Below, piece by piece: positions 18,801 through 27,800 of a DNA stretch of 64,000 nt. How positions within the stretch are numbered: position 1 is the stretch's first letter; each line of letters begins with the position of its first letter. The DNA comes from Owenia fusiformis. Taxonomy: Eukaryota; Annelida; Polychaeta; Sabellida; Oweniidae. Location of the stretch: positions 15,756,467 to 15,820,466 of the forward strand of contig CAIIXF020000002.1 of NCBI GenBank assembly GCA_903813345.2, read 5' to 3'. The translations under genes and the position numbers were made by a program. The notes under the pieces were generated by a model. The model did not search any database. It was not told where the DNA came from and was given only the letters and a program-made list of their open reading frames with translations.

Positions 18801-21800
18801 CATAGAGCCCATGTTATAAAATCACAAAAAGTTAAATATCTTTTATTTTAATGGTCAGATAATATTTTCCTTAGCTGGACATATTTTAATTTGCATAATT
18901 ATTAGATACATAAGGGTGATATGAAAATTGAACGGCTAAAACAGATAAATATTAAGTTAAAGGGAACTTTTTCCTATACCCGCCATGCTATTTGACCCGA
19001 ACGAGCCACCTAGTGGTGAAACTGGTAACTACATACTCGCATCTGAGTCATTATAATTAGATAAACAATGCCATTATGATCAAAATGAAGGTATTAAGTA
19101 GATGGAATCTATCAAAATACCATGAATACCCTTATCACATAGCCTTAAATTTTATTCTGTCAAGTTTTAATGACATCTGTTTTCTTTTTAATGCTTCGAT
19201 CACATAAGCTCCTATTCATCGGCTGGCGCATGTCTGATTGAGTATTTTGTTCAGAATTGCATTTATTTTTGAACAGAATACTCAATCTGCCGGGCGCCAG
19301 CCGATCAATCGGAGCTTATGTGAGCTAGGCATTAGTAGAAGAGGATTTGGGGAACTGACCCAATACTGAAAAATTAAGTTGTTTCACATTGGAATAAGCC
19401 ATATTAAAGGCAGAATCAGATCTATACGGGTGACAAAATTGCAACATCTACAACTGACCTACCAAACTAATTCCTTATGATCTCAAATACAACATCTCAC
19501 AAAAGATCCACAATATATTATAAATAAGTGAAGTTGCACTTTGGGGATATTTAGAAAATAGACAAGGAATGATTTGAGCAAAAAAATCTAAAATTGAAAC
19601 AGTTTTTTGTCAAGCTTGCTCGCTAGATCTGATCCTCCTTTAATATCAATTTTTGACTACTGACCTAAACCCACATATCTATTAAAATGATACATAGTTG
19701 TGCATTTTGATTGTATTCAAGCATTTTTTAATATTCCTTAAACTTTTAGAATGCTGCAGTGTTAATTTCCAAGATCAAATTCCTAGTACAAGAACATTAA
19801 GAAAAAAAAGATGTACGGGATTCAAAAAGTATATTTTTCATAAAGCAGTATAAACTTTCTAGCAATATTACATATAAGATTGTTAGATCAACAACTCTTT
19901 AAATCCTTGAATTAACGACCATTTAACAAAAAATGAGTAAAAAATATATATGTATCCATATCTTCTAAGTCCAATATTTCATGTTTTAATACGTCTATTG
20001 TACATAAAAAGAAATATCTAATTGTGTTATACTTACTTGGAAGTTGTGGGGTCCTCTGATAGTTCTATAGCATCCCCTGGTAGTTCATTGAAACACTTTT
20101 CACAATAGACATATCTGTCAGATAATTTGCCAAACTGCCTCAGACTGTAGGCACATCATGCAACACAGCAGCAAATTATGAAAGTAAACAAAAATGGAAT
20201 CTATGCAGTTTGTATTGAAAATATGAAAGTAAACAGAAATGGAATCCATGCAGTTTGTTTTGAAATTCTAATTTGTACGATGCAGACCAAATGAGTTGAT
20301 AAAGTGGTGACCAGCACATCTTTATTCATAAAGTACAATCTGACAATTGACATCAGGTTAGAAGAAATCTCAATGAAAGCAGATCCTGGAATCAATCTTA
20401 CTAGTACAAATACATTCTGAACATTTTTACAACTTTTAAAGTGTTGGGGGTTCCTATTTTGTCAAAAGTATTACTTTCACTTCTGCTAGTGATGTATTAA
20501 TTCATGTTAAGAATGTGTCAGAAGAATATGTGCCTTTTTGGTTCCTATTCTTAATCTACATGAAATAAAGATGGTATTGCTCTTGATATATTTAATGAAT
20601 GAATGGCCTCACATGGTATATTGGTTTCAGTACAATTGCAAGGTCCTTTAATATTTTTCTCTTTTTTCTCTATTTTTACCTATTTTGCGATGATGATTAC
20701 ATTACATACCTTGATTGGTAACTAAAATAGGTGGCATCTCTGGGTATGGTACATAACTGCTTGCCATAGCAGCACAACACCTGTGGGTTGTAGACATGTT
20801 TCCTCCCACAACAGTACCCCAAACCTTGCATCACAGAATCTATCTCCCCTTCAAATACCTCCGCTAGTTTGGTGCAGTACTTATAGACCCTTGATGTCTT
20901 CCTATTATAGACCCAAGCATTGTCAAACATGCGCCATACATCATCACAGAACTGCCAAGGGTCCTGGTACTGTCCTGTGTCCAGTTTACGGCGTATAGTG
21001 GCCATGTCCATAGGACATTTCACAATATCAAAGTAGTCCTGGAAAATTAATTTCAGTGTTTTCATGGTTTGAAAAAGTTTGTCATGCATGGATAATATTG
21101 TTTATGCCGCAATTTTATTACTGAATCAAGGCATCAACAATTTTACAATAAAACAAGGCATTAACATGCAAAATATCACCACCTGCCATTTGTTACATAT
21201 ACCAATTGCTAAACACGTCCAACCACTGAACACTAACCGCCAAACACTGTCAACAAAAAAAGGTGGAGACTATTACAATATGTCATCACTTCTGGTGGTG
21301 ACATAACAAGGTAATCTTAAGTTGATGTTTCAATTATTACATTGTGATAATACAAGGTGATCTTAACTGAGGCGTTGGGTGTTTTTTTTATATTGTGGTT
21401 ATACAAGGTGATCTTAACTGAGGCGATGGGTGTTTTTTTATATTGTGGTTATACAAGGTGATCTTAACTGAGGCGTTGGGTGTTTTTTTTATATTGTGGT
21501 TATACAAGGTGATCTTAACTGTGGCATTGGGTGTTTTTTTTATATTGTGGTTATACAAGGTGATCTTCACTGAGGCGTTGGGTGTTTTATATTGTGGTAA
21601 TACAAGGTGATCTTAACTGAGGCGTTGGGTGTTTTTATATTGTGGTAATACAAGGTGATCTTAACTGAGGCGTTGGGTGTTTTTATATTGTGGTAATACA
21701 AGGTGATCTTAACTGAGGTGTTGGGTGTTTTTATATTGTGGTAATACAAGGTGATCTTAACTGAGGCGTTGGGTGTTTTTATATTGTGGTTATACAAGGT

Positions 21801-24800
21801 GATCTTAACTGAGGCGTTGGGTGTTTTTATATTGTGGTTATACAAGGTGATCTTAACTGAGGCATTGGGTGTTTTTATATTGTCGTGGGTAATACAAGGT
21901 GATCTTAACTGAGGTGTTAGGTGTTTTTATATTGTGGTTATACAAGGTGATCTTAACTGAGGCGTTGGGTGTTTTTATATTGTGGTTATACAAGGTGATC
22001 TTAACTGAGGCGTTGGGTGTTTTTATATTGTGGTTATACAAGGTGATCTTAACTGAGGCGTTGGGTGTTTTTATATTGTGGTTATACAAGGTGATCTTAA
22101 CTGAGGCGTTGGGTGTTTTTATATTGTGGTTATACAAGGTGATCTTAACTGAGGCGTTGGGTGTTTTTATATTGTGGTTATACAAGGTGATCTTAACTGA
22201 GGCATTGGGTGTTTTTATATTGTGGTAATACAAGGTGATCTTAACTGAGGCGTTGGGTGTTTTTATATTGTGGTTATACAAGATGATCTTAACTGAGGCA
22301 TTGGGTGTTTTTATATTGTGGTTATACAAGGTGATCTTAACTGAGGCGTTGGGTGTTTTTATATTGTGGTTATACAAGGTGATCTTAACTGAGGCATTGG
22401 GTGTTTTTATATTGTGCAGTGATCTCCCCATGTCACTTTTACCGGAGGCTCCCCCTACTTGAAACCAAAGGCCCCCCAGTTGGCACCCAGTTGGAATCTG
22501 CACTTCAACTTCTGATTTGAAAAATGAGTGAAGTAAGCACCTACACTGAGATATTGTGAGCGTAGCGATAGCTGATTTTTTCAGACTTGAAATCTTGCAC
22601 CCAGTTGAAATATTTTTTGGGGGAGAACACTGTTGTGGTAATACAAGGTGATCTTAACTGAGGTGTTAGGTGTTTTTATATTGTGGTTATACAAGGTGAT
22701 CTTAACAGAGGCGTTGGGTGTTTTTATATTGTGGTAATACAAGGTGATCTTAACTGAGGTGTTAGGTATTTTTATATTGTGGTTATACAAGGTGATCTTA
22801 ACTGAGGCGTTGGGTGTTTTTATATTGTGGTTATACAAGGTGATCTTAACTGAGGTGTTGGGTGTTTTTATATTGTGGTTATACAAGGTGATCTTAACTG
22901 AGGCGTTGGGTGTTTTTATATTGTGGTAATACAAGGTGATCTTAACAGAGGCGTTGGGTGTTTTTATATCGTGGTTATACAAGGTGATCTTAACTGAGGC
23001 GTTGGGTGTTTTTATATTGTGGTTATACAAGGTGATCTTAACTGAGGCATTGGGTGTTTTTATATTGTGCAGTGATCTCCCCATGTCACTTTTACCGGGG
23101 GCTCCCCCTACTTGAAACCAAAGGCCCCCCAGTTGGCACCCAGTTGGAATCTGCACTTCAACTTCTGATTTGAAAAATGAGTGAAGTAAGCACCTACACT
23201 GAGATATTGTGAGCGTAGCGATAGCTGATTTTTTCAGACTTGAAATCTTGCACCCAGTTGAAATTTTTTTTGGGGGAGAACACTGTTTTGGTAATACAAG
23301 GTGATCTTAACTGAGGTGTTAGGTGTTTTTATATTGTGGTTATACAAGGTGATCTTAACAGAGGCGTTGGGTGTTTTTATATTGTGGTAATACAAGGTGA
23401 TCTTAACTGAGGTGTTAGGTATTTTTATATTGTGGTTATACAAGGTGATCTTAACTGAGGCGTTGGGTGTTTTTATATTGTGGTTATACAAGGTGATCTT
23501 AACTGAGGCATTGGGTGTTTTTATATTGTGGTAATACAAGGTGATCTTAACTGAGGCGTTGGGTGTTTTTATATTGTGGTTATACAGGGTGATCTTAACT
23601 GAGGCGTTGGGTGTTTTTATATTGTGGTTATACAAGGTGATCTTAACTGAGGCGTTGGGTGTTTTCATTGTTAGAGTGTGATAATAAAAGGTGATCTTAT
23701 CTGAGGTGTTGGGTGTTTCATTGTTACATTGTAATATACAAGGTGATCTTAACTGAGGTGTTAGTGTGATAAGGAACATGCATGTTAATAACTACCCGTC
23801 TATTAAAGACACAGACCTTTCAAAAATAAATTTTCAAAATGGTGATGAAAATATTATTTTATCTGATTTGATGAATTTAATGACAGGGACACCCCGAAAC
23901 AGCCTGACTACGGTAAAGTCAGATACTGTTGTCACAAATGGCGGACTTAACCGTCACTTCAATTAGATTTTCATGAACTGTATGTTTAATAGAGCACCTA
24001 GATCAAATTCCTTTGGAACAACAATCAATCAAAGTGTCTTAATACTCATTGTACAGATAATAATGTTCTACCATCGAAATAAAGTCTTTAATTTAACCGA
24101 TCAAAATGAGATACGGGACAACGGACACTGTAATTACCATATGCCGTTGTCTTTCTAAATTACTAAAAATCAGATTCCACTGTCATTGACGATATCGAAG
24201 ACGCTATATTGTGGCGATTCACGACCCAATTTGATCGAAAATGGGTTTTCATATGATACATTATCACAAGAGCTTAATGCATGCACAGAATTAGTGACAA
24301 TAACAACCCATCAAATGAGGACCAAGTGATTAAACAGTTGAAGCGACGGTTATCTCCGCCATTTGTGACAACCGTATCTGACTTTACCGTAGTCAGGCTA
24401 TTCCGGTGTGAGGGAAGAATCTTGTCCTGAAAGTTAAAGTATTTGAAATGGTGGATGGTGGGAAATAGAGTGAAGTAGGCCATGAACAAAATGAATGAAT
24501 AAAAGATGTATTCTCACATTTTTGTTCCATCAAAAAATGAATGAATAGGAATTTAAGCTGATGAACAAAGGTTATGGTGAAAACATGCTTTTAATGTTAC
24601 CTACAAGGAAGTGAAAGCTGAATCATTTTACAAATTTATTGCCATAGCAACTAGAGCTTGTCCTGAACACATTACTTCAATATAACTACAATCTGAGACC
24701 CTATTGCCTTAAGTATGAACTTAGAAAGTGTACTGTAACTGTTAAATGCCAAGTGAGAGCATGTATGATCTCCAGTTGTCCACACTATCTGCTTACTAGT

Positions 24801-27800
24801 CATTACACTCAACAGCCAAAGTTATGTTATGGAACAACTACTTATCCTAAATGGTATTAGTGTGACATGCTGATTGGTCTGTGCCTTTAAAAACTTACGG
24901 GTATTCCTAGAGCAATGGGATCTACAGGCTCCCTGAATGGCACAGCTTCTGGATCTTGCTTGTTTAACTTCTCCAAAATGGGCATCAACGTTTGACGTAA
25001 TTCATCCGGATTAAAAACTGGAATAGGTATAATGAAAAAGAAAAATATAAAACATTTATGTTCAAACTTACAGGAATTTGTAGAGCTTCTGGGTCTACTG
25101 GATTCCTAAATGGCAGAGACTCGGGGTCCTGTTTGTATAACTTCTCCAGAACAGGCATTAACGCTTGCCGTAATTCATCTGGGATAAATACTGCAATGTA
25201 ATGGCCACAATTAATAATAATGAGCCAAAACTTTCTTAGAAATTAAGCTAAACAACGATGTTCCTGTTTCCCAGTTGTATTGTCAGTAGTTACCTGTGGT
25301 AAAAACAAGTTGTAACAATAGTAACTGTATTTGTATCTTAGGATGAGGATTACAGCGATTAGAACAGGGGAATACATACTTTTCTTTGCCCTAGGTTTGA
25401 CTGGTGGTGGTGGTGTGCTCTCAGTTTTCACCAACACATCTTTGCTATCTGTACTAGAGTCTGCTGGAGTGGAAGGCTCTGGTTTATCACTAGGTTCCTC
25501 CTTAACTGCTGTTGATGCATCTGCACCTGGCTCTGTCTTAATCTCTTCCTTTATAGTTTTGTCAGCTACTTCTGGGGTTTTAATGGCTGCAGCTGCTGGC
25601 TGATATGAGCTGCTATCAGTTGGTTCTGTCTTCACTTCAGTCTTGATTTCCTCTTTGATTTCTGTTTTGACAGCGGTTGCCAAATCTTTGCTGGCTGTTG
25701 TAGTGCCTGGCCCAGTATCACTGATGAGCTGCTGAAGAGGTGTTTGTTGGGCTGTTGTTGTAGCAGTGCTAGTTTGCTGTTGTTGTTGCTGCTGCTGTTG
25801 CTGATCATTCAACTGAAACATTTCATTTTTCATAATGACAAACCACATTGGAGATGATCAGATAAATTGCAGGCCAATTCCTCACAAATCAAGGAATAGA
25901 AGCTTTGCTATAAAGCTCTGTTCCATTCTGAAAAATCGAGCTAAAAAGTGATCTCCTCAGGATTTTTATCAAGTTTCAGCATTCAGAGGGGCCTTACTAT
26001 CTCTAAACTGTTCTCTTTTAAATCGTTTTGCACATCTACAGCTATAAGATCATTACAGGCCTCGTTGTTACAGGAAGAGAGAATTGTTTACAGTATTCAT
26101 ATATCCTAATCAGGGTTTAATGCAGGGAAAGTGATCTTCAAATTTTTTGAATTTTTCTGAATTATTTCCGAATTTTTTAGCAGGAATTTTAACGGACAGC
26201 ATGGAGGGTGGATGTATTGAACAGGGTGGGTACAGGGCACTAGAAATGAACCAACAGGGTAGGGCACCATTCAATTAGCTCCTGGGGAGATCACAACTAA
26301 ACCACCTTTATTACAACACTATCCAAGACAGACATGGTGTTAGGTCTTTCTATACTCAATTAAGTTTGGATTTTTATCCCAGAACTACTAAGCTTAACTT
26401 ACAATAATGACTTAAGTCATCTTATGTGTAATGTTGAGTTGATCAGAACTTAAAGTCTTACATGTTACACAAAAGAAAACAGGTTAAGAAATGTTTATCA
26501 ATGGAATAAATAACTTTTTGAATTTTCAAAATCAATATTTTTAATCTACATGGTGAAATATTGCCTATTGGGTATTTAGTTAGGAGCAAGATGGTCATGG
26601 GTCATAAAAGTACCATTTATCTGTGTGGTTAAATGTCCATCTTAAGTTGCTTGTCTGGATTATACAAAGCTTGATTTTCCTACATAACTATTGACTGACA
26701 ACATGTAATTGAAACATACCTGTGCCTCTCTCTTCTGAAGAGCATTTTGGAACTGTCGCTGCGATTCTTCTAAAGCACGGTGTACACTTTGAGGTTGAGG
26801 AGGTGGACCCATCTATAGCAGAGAAATGTAGCTTTTGAGGAATTCTGACCCATAGAGACTACTTATTGCATGTTTATGAGTTTCTGGGAACAATTCAAAT
26901 ATAACTTTCTACGACACATGAAACTGCCAGGATATGGAAATGTTTCCTTAGAGGCAGAATCAGATCTAGGGAGCAAGCTAAACAAAGATTGTTTTAATTC
27001 TAGAATATTTTTGGCTCATACCATTCCTTCATTCCAGATGTCTAATTTAATAAAATGTCATAAAAGGGTAGATACTAAATAATATAAAATATGATTTAAA
27101 ATACAAATAATTATTACAACTAATAATATAGAGGACTTACCATTCTTACTTGGTTCTGATTGGTGCTGGGTGCTAAACCATTTGCTGCCAATGATGGTCT
27201 CAGATTGTTCAGAGGCATTGGGGTGGCTGGAGGTGAATTAAATGGATCCGTACCCCCAGGCAAACTTGCACCTAACCTTGGAGTGGGACCAGATAAGGGC
27301 CCATTGGCTTGTCCCCGTAACTGGGCTAATGTGGTTGCTAAACTTGCGGGTGGTGGAATAGCAGCTCCAGGAGGAGCATTAGGATTTTGCTCCTTAACTC
27401 GCTTTTGACGCTTTTCTTCAAGTTCTTTTTGTATCTTGTAGATTTTTTCAGCTAGGTAATGGTAGTACTCTTCGCGACTGTTGGCACACTCATACATATC
27501 TCCTTCCACTTTACGTGCATATGCGACTAGATTATTCATCCTCCTGTCCTTTAATGCTTGGGGGTCAGGTGCCGGAAATATTGCTTGAACCCTATAAATG
27601 ATTAGTTATAGACATAATTGATATTTAAAGTGACTATGTAATCAGCTATATATCATAAATTTATATATTACTTTTGTAAGTTTAAGATCTATGTTGCCAT
27701 TCTGACTCTAGAAATAGAACAAGTTTAAATTCCATATTCCACTGGTATGGCAACAGAATGCGGGTATAGAAAATATGCAGGCTTCATGCTGTATCCTCCC

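What the first reader, a model, noticed from the sequence alone, without database searches (positions are those of the whole stretch)
24899..25190. Mutually exclusive exon pair switching the CBP bromodomain acetyl-lysine shelf
Seen: two tandem exons of exactly 119 nt with good splice sites, the same phases and 31/40 identical residues, 54 nt apart. Including both adds 238 nt in place of 119 and breaks the frame, and a 54-nt intron may be too short to splice, so exclusive use is favoured. Known: this segment is helix Z plus the start of the ZA loop, and the LPF shelf lines the acetyl-lysine pocket of CBP/p300 bromodomains. 11a has LPF and 11b has VPF, with a nearby Asn/Glu change and a Tyr/Asn change. 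Inference: the animal makes two CBP proteins with different acetyl-lysine reading. I know of no described splice switch in this pocket in CBP/p300.
Basis: partly seen in the sequence, partly recalled or inferred. Interest (0 to 1): 0.93.

Follow-up and report, generated by a model that had tools for sequence, protein, structure and literature searches.

The report
Swappable bromodomain exon in CBP gene
The only CBP/p300 gene found in this animal carries two side-by-side, mutually incompatible versions of the exon that builds much of the acetyl-lysine-reading pocket, so it can probably make two CBP proteins that read acetylation marks slightly differently; no RNA data were available to show it.

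Summary
On the minus strand, 25190-25072 (11a) and 25017-24899 (11b) are two 119-nt exons with GT-AG sites, equal phases, 31/40 identical residues and 54 nt between them. Either one alone completes a CBP bromodomain (Pfam 75.4 and 74.3 bits). Using both gives a stop 10 codons into 11b; using neither stops within four codons. Seventeen codons differ silently and nine change the residue; simulations with one copy neutral never gave so few replacements (0 of 400), so both copies look functional. The 54-nt intron is far below the others measured (98 estimated, minimum 118; 12 placed in CBP, minimum 121-125). This supports a mutually exclusive pair enforced by spacing and frame. CBP appears single-copy. 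Of eight pocket residues listed in one CBP-inhibitor study, six lie in this exon and two differ between copies (1109 L/V, 1113 N/E); the rest are unchanged, so tuned acetyl-lysine reading is plausible but unproven. No RNA or related-species data were available. Among the papers listed by ten searches I saw no such switch in CBP/p300.

The parts
25380..25812 (-). Upstream exon ('exon 10'), predicted 433 nt, poly-Q and acidic linker before the bromodomain, ends in ...KPRAKK plus one base
   Evidence: reading frame, TTTCAG| acceptor (predicted) and A|GTATGT donor
25072..25190 (-). Exon 11a, 119 nt, [40 protein letters not shown] (helix Z and ZA-loop start, LPF shelf)
   Evidence: TTGCAG| and |GTAAGT sites; 31/40 identical to the CBP chain
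25018..25071 (-). 54-nt intervening intron GTAAGT...TTCCAG
   Evidence: length and sites; shorter than every other intron measured
25034..25048 (-). Candidate branch adenine (25048, 24 nt from the 11a donor, 30 nt from the 11b acceptor) and pyrimidine tract (25045-25034) of exon 11b
   Evidence: loose yTnAh scan; a stricter nTrAy scan found none; inference only
24899..25017 (-). Exon 11b, 119 nt, [40 protein letters not shown] (VPF shelf)
   Evidence: TTCCAG| and |GTAAGT sites; 28/40 identical to the CBP chain
20710..21038 (-). Shared downstream exon ('exon 12'), 329 nt, rest of the bromodomain (DYFDIV... with the pocket Asn and Val)
   Evidence: ORF, splice sites, match to the CBP chain

Best explanation
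A tandem duplication of the first bromodomain exon of the single CBP/p300 gene has become a two-member mutually exclusive exon pair. Shown from sequence: two intact, constrained, phase-matched copies; either one alone completes a CBP bromodomain; both or neither gives an early stop. Inferred: the spliceosome does not readily join 11a to 11b because the intron is only 54 nt, so any branch site lies near or under the proposed donor-branch limit of about 50 nt; each transcript therefore carries one copy, and frame-shifted by-products are removed by nonsense-mediated decay. How the choice is made is open: 11b has the most pyrimidine-rich acceptor of 15 compared (81%), 11a a middling one (57%, the median), so 11b might be the stronger default site, with a pyrimidine-tract-binding factor shifting use to 11a (speculative). 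The two proteins keep the acetyl-lysine-binding core but differ at shelf residue 1109 (L/V), ZA-loop residue 1113 (N/E) and seven other sites, so they probably differ in affinity or peptide preference rather than in ability to bind.
For: Sites, lengths, phases; frame consequences; 17 silent against 9 replacement codons, dN 0.15-0.18, dS 0.70-1.89, 19 of 31 base changes at third positions; simulation with one copy neutral: 0 of 400 runs with 9 or fewer replacements in each of two settings, mean 1.6 stops, while both copies at omega 0.1 give a mean of 8.4; both isoforms score as bromodomains; no intron under 118 nt in 98 estimated pairs, and 121-125 nt the shortest of 12 others placed in CBP; the pair and the KAT11 domain were found nowhere else in the assembly; 13 copies of a 157-nt exon in a myosin gene suggest that the lineage uses this kind of splicing; OGDH exons 4a/4b are held exclusive by branch points 25-41 nt from the donor (PMC7969005, passages).
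Against: No transcript, tissue or related-species data. A human 56-nt intron is spliced with SPF45 (PMC8363638, passages), so 54 nt is not an absolute bar. The branch site is only a loose match, with none by the stricter scan. The 11a acceptor is not weak for this gene (median of 15). No competing RNA pairing between the introns stood out (18, 15, 88 and 82 of 100 shuffles as good). Partial relaxation of one copy was not simulated, and 40 codons cannot resolve it.
Confidence: 0.82

Rival explanations
1. Mutually exclusive use is real, but the two bromodomains read acetyl-lysine alike; the pair matters for another surface (helix Z, contacts with the neighbouring RING/PHD/HAT core) or only for expression control.
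For: Six of eight pocket residues listed for CBP are the same in both isoforms; L to V at 1109 is conservative; seven of the nine differences lie outside that list.
Against: The CBP and p300 chains, which are paralogues, are identical over these 40 residues, so nine differences inside one gene is a lot for so conserved a segment; two of the nine are at ligand-contact positions.
Confidence: 0.4
2. Only one copy is used and the other is a decaying relic of an exon duplication.
For: No expression data here; 11b departs more from the CBP chain (12 against 9 differences).
Against: Open frame, intact sites and equal length after near-saturated silent divergence; 0 of 400 simulated runs with one neutral copy match, in each of two settings.
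Confidence: 0.07
3. 11b serves mainly as a poison element: joint inclusion of 11a and 11b gives a stop 10 codons into 11b and lowers CBP dosage through decay.
For: Double inclusion is frame-breaking.
Against: A poison exon need not keep protein sequence, yet 11b looks constrained at protein level, and joint inclusion needs splicing of the shortest intron in the sample.
Confidence: 0.05

Closest known systems
Two-member mutually exclusive exons enforced by a short intron or near-donor branch point (OGDH 4a/4b, PMC7969005; alpha-tropomyosin, recalled and in that paper's reference list)
   Same: Two homologous exons, branch site predicted within 50 nt of the upstream donor, uridine-rich tract before the second exon
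   Different: 54-nt intron here against 118-131 nt in bird and mammal OGDH; branch site here is only predicted; the host protein is a histone acetyltransferase co-activator
CREBBP/EP300 bromodomain (PDB 3dwy, 5bt3 and others; taken as human, the table names no organism)
   Same: Same 40-residue segment and the same pocket core residues
   Different: Those chains carry one version of the segment; this gene carries two (that the human gene has one such exon is recalled)
Mutually exclusive exon clusters of muscle myosin heavy chain (recalled for Drosophila Mhc)
   Same: Tandem copies of a domain-building exon in one gene; 13 copies of a 157-nt exon lie in a myosin gene of this genome
   Different: Many copies, so spacing alone cannot enforce the choice there

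Membership tests
Mutually exclusive exon pair | Adjacent homologous exons of equal length and phase | tested here: met
   119/119 nt, same phases, 88/119 nt and 31/40 aa identity
Mutually exclusive exon pair | Exactly one copy restores the frame | tested here: met
   single inclusion open through exon 13; both or neither gives an early stop
Mutually exclusive exon pair | Both copies under protein-level constraint | tested here: met
   dN 0.15-0.18 against dS 0.70-1.89; 0 of 400 neutral-copy runs match; partial relaxation of one copy not tested
Mutually exclusive exon pair | Transcripts contain one or the other and not both | not testable with these tools
   no RNA data held
Spacing-enforced two-exon type | Intervening intron or donor-branch distance too short to splice | tested here: inconclusive
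   54 nt against a sampled minimum of 118-125 nt; the branch site is predicted only
Mixed U2/U12 two-exon type | Introns of different spliceosome classes | tested here: not met
   the three donors around the pair are GTATGT, GTAAGT and GTAAGT, acceptors TTGCAG, TTCCAG and TTCCAG
Docking/selector RNA-structure type | Competing intron pairings better than chance | tested here: inconclusive
   18, 15, 88 and 82 of 100 mononucleotide shuffles as good; a short duplex search over parts of the introns
CBP/p300 acetyltransferase | Bromodomain, KAT11 HAT and ZZ in CBP order | tested here: met
   623-residue reading that I joined from exons matches the CBP chain over residues 1-621, E 1.3e-285; KAT11 exons; the ZZ label is recalled
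Conserved pair across related species | Both exons present in relatives | not testable with these tools
   the tool holds no relatives of this genome (header); scans of bacterial/archaeal and viral contigs with exon 12 found none

The most novel reading that the evidence does not exclude
An animal with one CBP/p300 gene uses a regulated splice switch in place of gene duplication to make two CBP proteins whose bromodomains prefer different acetylated targets, changing which chromatin marks the co-activator follows by tissue or life stage.
Probability: 0.4. Interest if true: 0.82.

Novelty: new member of a known kind. Interest (0 to 1): 0.64.

Why it matters
CBP/p300 sits at most active enhancers (general knowledge), and this part of its bromodomain is highly conserved: the CBP and p300 chains of the PDB are identical over these 40 residues. 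A natural two-version pocket would be an evolved test of which residues tune acetyl-lysine reading, and would show splicing doing a job that gene duplication could do in vertebrates. If the genome is Owenia fusiformis or a close relative (a guess), published transcriptome data over the life cycle could settle it without a new experiment.

Tried and rejected
Scans for the shared exon 12 in genome contigs (44 pattern hits, 0 relatives) and viral contigs (2 hits, 0 relatives) gave no other species. Intron similarity around the two copies was at chance (256 and 135 of 300 shuffles as good), so flanks cannot date the duplication. RNA pairing between introns was unremarkable.

Intron survey limits: the match lists are themselves capped (first-look candidates scored: myosin 65 of 210, TCP1 76 of 76, kinesin 122 of 218). 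One search used 92 of 92 myosin, 59 of 60 TCP1 and, by hand count, 63 of 144 kinesin rows; one search repeated kinesin with 127 of 144 (17 of the 18 copies of one 158-159-nt repeat left out), giving 39 pairs and the same minimum of 118. Lengths are profile estimates, by my judgement about +/-20 nt, and a short intron could be swallowed by a read-through match: 8 of the 127 kinesin rows were 36 nt or more longer than their profile span. I read the two with a 48-nt excess (L001, L002) by eye and saw no such intron; the other six (147-414 nt excess) were not inspected, and myosin and TCP1 rows were not checked this way. In the CBP gene 12 introns besides the 54-nt one were placed, with donors chosen by consensus where several GT fitted; introns upstream of exon 10 and between 20036 and 17332 were not resolved.

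first placed the exon 10 end one base wrong; one search is the corrected frame analysis. Four of the 15 acceptors were cut one base off the AG. One search used a pattern of no relevance; only its header and its contig names are used.

Full report
WHAT IS THERE. The window's minus strand carries a CBP/p300 gene. A 623-residue reading that I joined from its recognised exons, from the second bromodomain exon to ZZ (label recalled), matches the CBP chain 8hal_K over residues 1-621 (E 1.3e-285). Where that chain has one 40-residue segment at the start of the bromodomain, this gene has two tandem exons, 25190-25072 and 25017-24899, 119 nt each, with a 54-nt GT-AG intron between them. Both align to CBP and p300 chains over all 40 columns. 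The tables name no organism; I take these chains as human.

FRAME. Predicted exon 10 (25812-25380, 433 nt) plus either copy plus exons 12 and 13 is open (320 codons). Both copies together hit a stop 10 codons into 11b; neither copy gives a stop within four codons; keeping the 54-nt intron also ends in a stop. So exactly one copy must be used to make CBP.

BOTH COPIES LOOK CONSTRAINED. Of 40 codons, 14 are identical, 17 differ silently and 9 change the residue; changes by codon position are 9, 3 and 19. dN is 0.15-0.18 and dS 0.70-1.89 by four methods. I simulated divergence matched to the third-position count. With both copies at omega 0.1 the mean is 8.4 replacements (omega 0.05: 5.2; 0.2: 14.7). 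With one copy neutral the mean is 25 to 26 replacements and 1.6 stops, and 0 of 400 runs gave 9 or fewer, in each of two settings. The model is simple (kappa 2, window base composition, start from 11a), and partial relaxation of one copy was not simulated. Near-saturated silent sites mean an old duplication and argue against an assembly duplicate or an allele. Flanking introns share no similarity above chance.

WHY EXCLUSIVE. In this genome 98 exon pairs adjacent in myosin, TCP1 and kinesin profiles give estimated introns of 118 nt or more, median 382 (a fuller kinesin set gives 39 pairs with the same minimum; limits under Tried and rejected). In the CBP gene 12 other introns were placed: 189, 595, 302, 125 (121 with another donor), 340, 287, 248, 459, 382, 220 and 750 nt, and 3860 nt between 11b and 12. 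The 54-nt intron is less than half the shortest. A loose scan puts branch candidates 10, 24 and 39 nt from the 11a donor, and a stricter one finds none; in so short an intron any branch site is close to the donor. PMC7969005 (passages) cites a steric threshold of about 50 nt and shows OGDH exons 4a/4b held exclusive by branch points 25-41 nt from the donor. Against this, a human 56-nt intron is spliced with the help of SPF45 (PMC8363638, passages). PMC6071210 (passages) lists short introns and nonsense-mediated decay as proposed routes to exclusivity in two-exon clusters; both could apply here. Among 15 acceptors compared, 11b is the most pyrimidine-rich (81%, longest run 9); 11a is the median (57%), with a longest run of 2, joint shortest. 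So 11b may be the stronger site, but 11a is not weak for this gene.

GENOME CONTEXT. The KAT11 domain gives 4 matches in 498 Mb, all in this window, and of 28 matches to the bromodomain query the exon pair occurs only here; the best match elsewhere is another bromodomain at E 5e-9. So CBP looks single-copy, although a missing match in this genome does not prove absence. The same genome has 13 tandem copies of a 157-nt exon of a myosin gene in the 8.5 kb I fetched, each with AG before and GT after (read by hand). That suggests exclusive exon choice is in use, but splicing of that array was not tested either.

WHAT DIFFERS IN THE PROTEIN. With numbering anchored on L1109-P1110-F1111 (PMC5644722, passage), the copies differ at 1086, 1093, 1097, 1102, 1108, 1109, 1113, 1118 and 1121. 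PMC8058528 (passages) lists eight CBP residues in its inhibitor free-energy table: 1109, 1110, 1113, 1115, 1120, 1122, 1168 and 1174. Six are in this exon, and two of those differ (L/V at 1109; N/E at 1113, where the CBP chain has Q). The other four match the CBP chain in both copies, and the Asn and Val of exon 12 are kept (alignment). PMC8311651 (passages) also describes the LPF shelf, R1173 and N1168 as ligand contacts. These are inhibitor contacts, not histone-peptide contacts. 11a equals the CBP chain at four of the nine sites, 11b at one (G1121), neither at four. The CBP and p300 chains do not differ over the 40 residues. Both isoforms score alike against the Pfam bromodomain (75.4, 74.3 bits). 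I therefore expect two working readers with tuned affinity or preference; this step is inference.

NOVELTY. Ten full-text searches of the open-access library (of these 3, 10, 31, 32 and 51 aimed at this question) listed no title or abstract start describing mutually exclusive exons in a CBP/p300 bromodomain. The listings were capped: one search showed 20 of 86 papers, one search showed 12 of 1,048. PMC1949830 (passages), on splicing of epigenetic regulators, mentions partial loss of a SMARCA2 bromodomain and a small TAZ change in C. elegans cbp-1, and does not use 'mutually exclusive'. PMC12153100 (passages), on annelid chromatin regulators, does not contain 'CBP', 'p300' or 'bromodomain' in its main text and took the longest isoform per gene for its trees. 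Subscription papers and database annotation were not searchable.

SPECIES. The assembly has 498.3 Mb in 525 contigs; 50 of the 52 matches fall on contigs C1-C12, and the four large contigs measured are 39-62 Mb. PMC9977687 (passages) reports 505.8 Mb and 12 chromosome-scale scaffolds for the annelid Owenia fusiformis. This is a guess from size and number only; no sequence test of identity was possible.

Noticed in passing
L005 (G000:C9:37985900-37994400): Thirteen tandem copies of one 157-nt exon (T[FY]SGLFC..NPY...) of a myosin head on the minus strand, each with AG before and GT after: a large putative mutually exclusive array. Copies outside this stretch were not counted.
   Followed up: partly
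window 21337-23762: A 48-nt minisatellite (rows of 35.2 and 9.7 copies, with a 144-nt higher-order period) fills much of the intron between exons 11b and 12.
   Followed up: partly
window 23890-23962 and 24338-24410: 73-nt inverted repeats, 90% complementary, 375 nt apart in the same intron; possibly a small foldback transposable element.
   Followed up: no
G000:C2:23266359-23269174: The last part of a kinesin motor (profile 290-327) appears 18 times at 158-159-nt spacing with near-identical scores: a coding segment caught in a tandem repeat, or an exon array.
   Followed up: no
window 25285-25300: The intron before exon 11a contains an internal CAG|GTAACT site (cut at 25294/25293), a possible cryptic or recursive splice site.
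   Followed up: no
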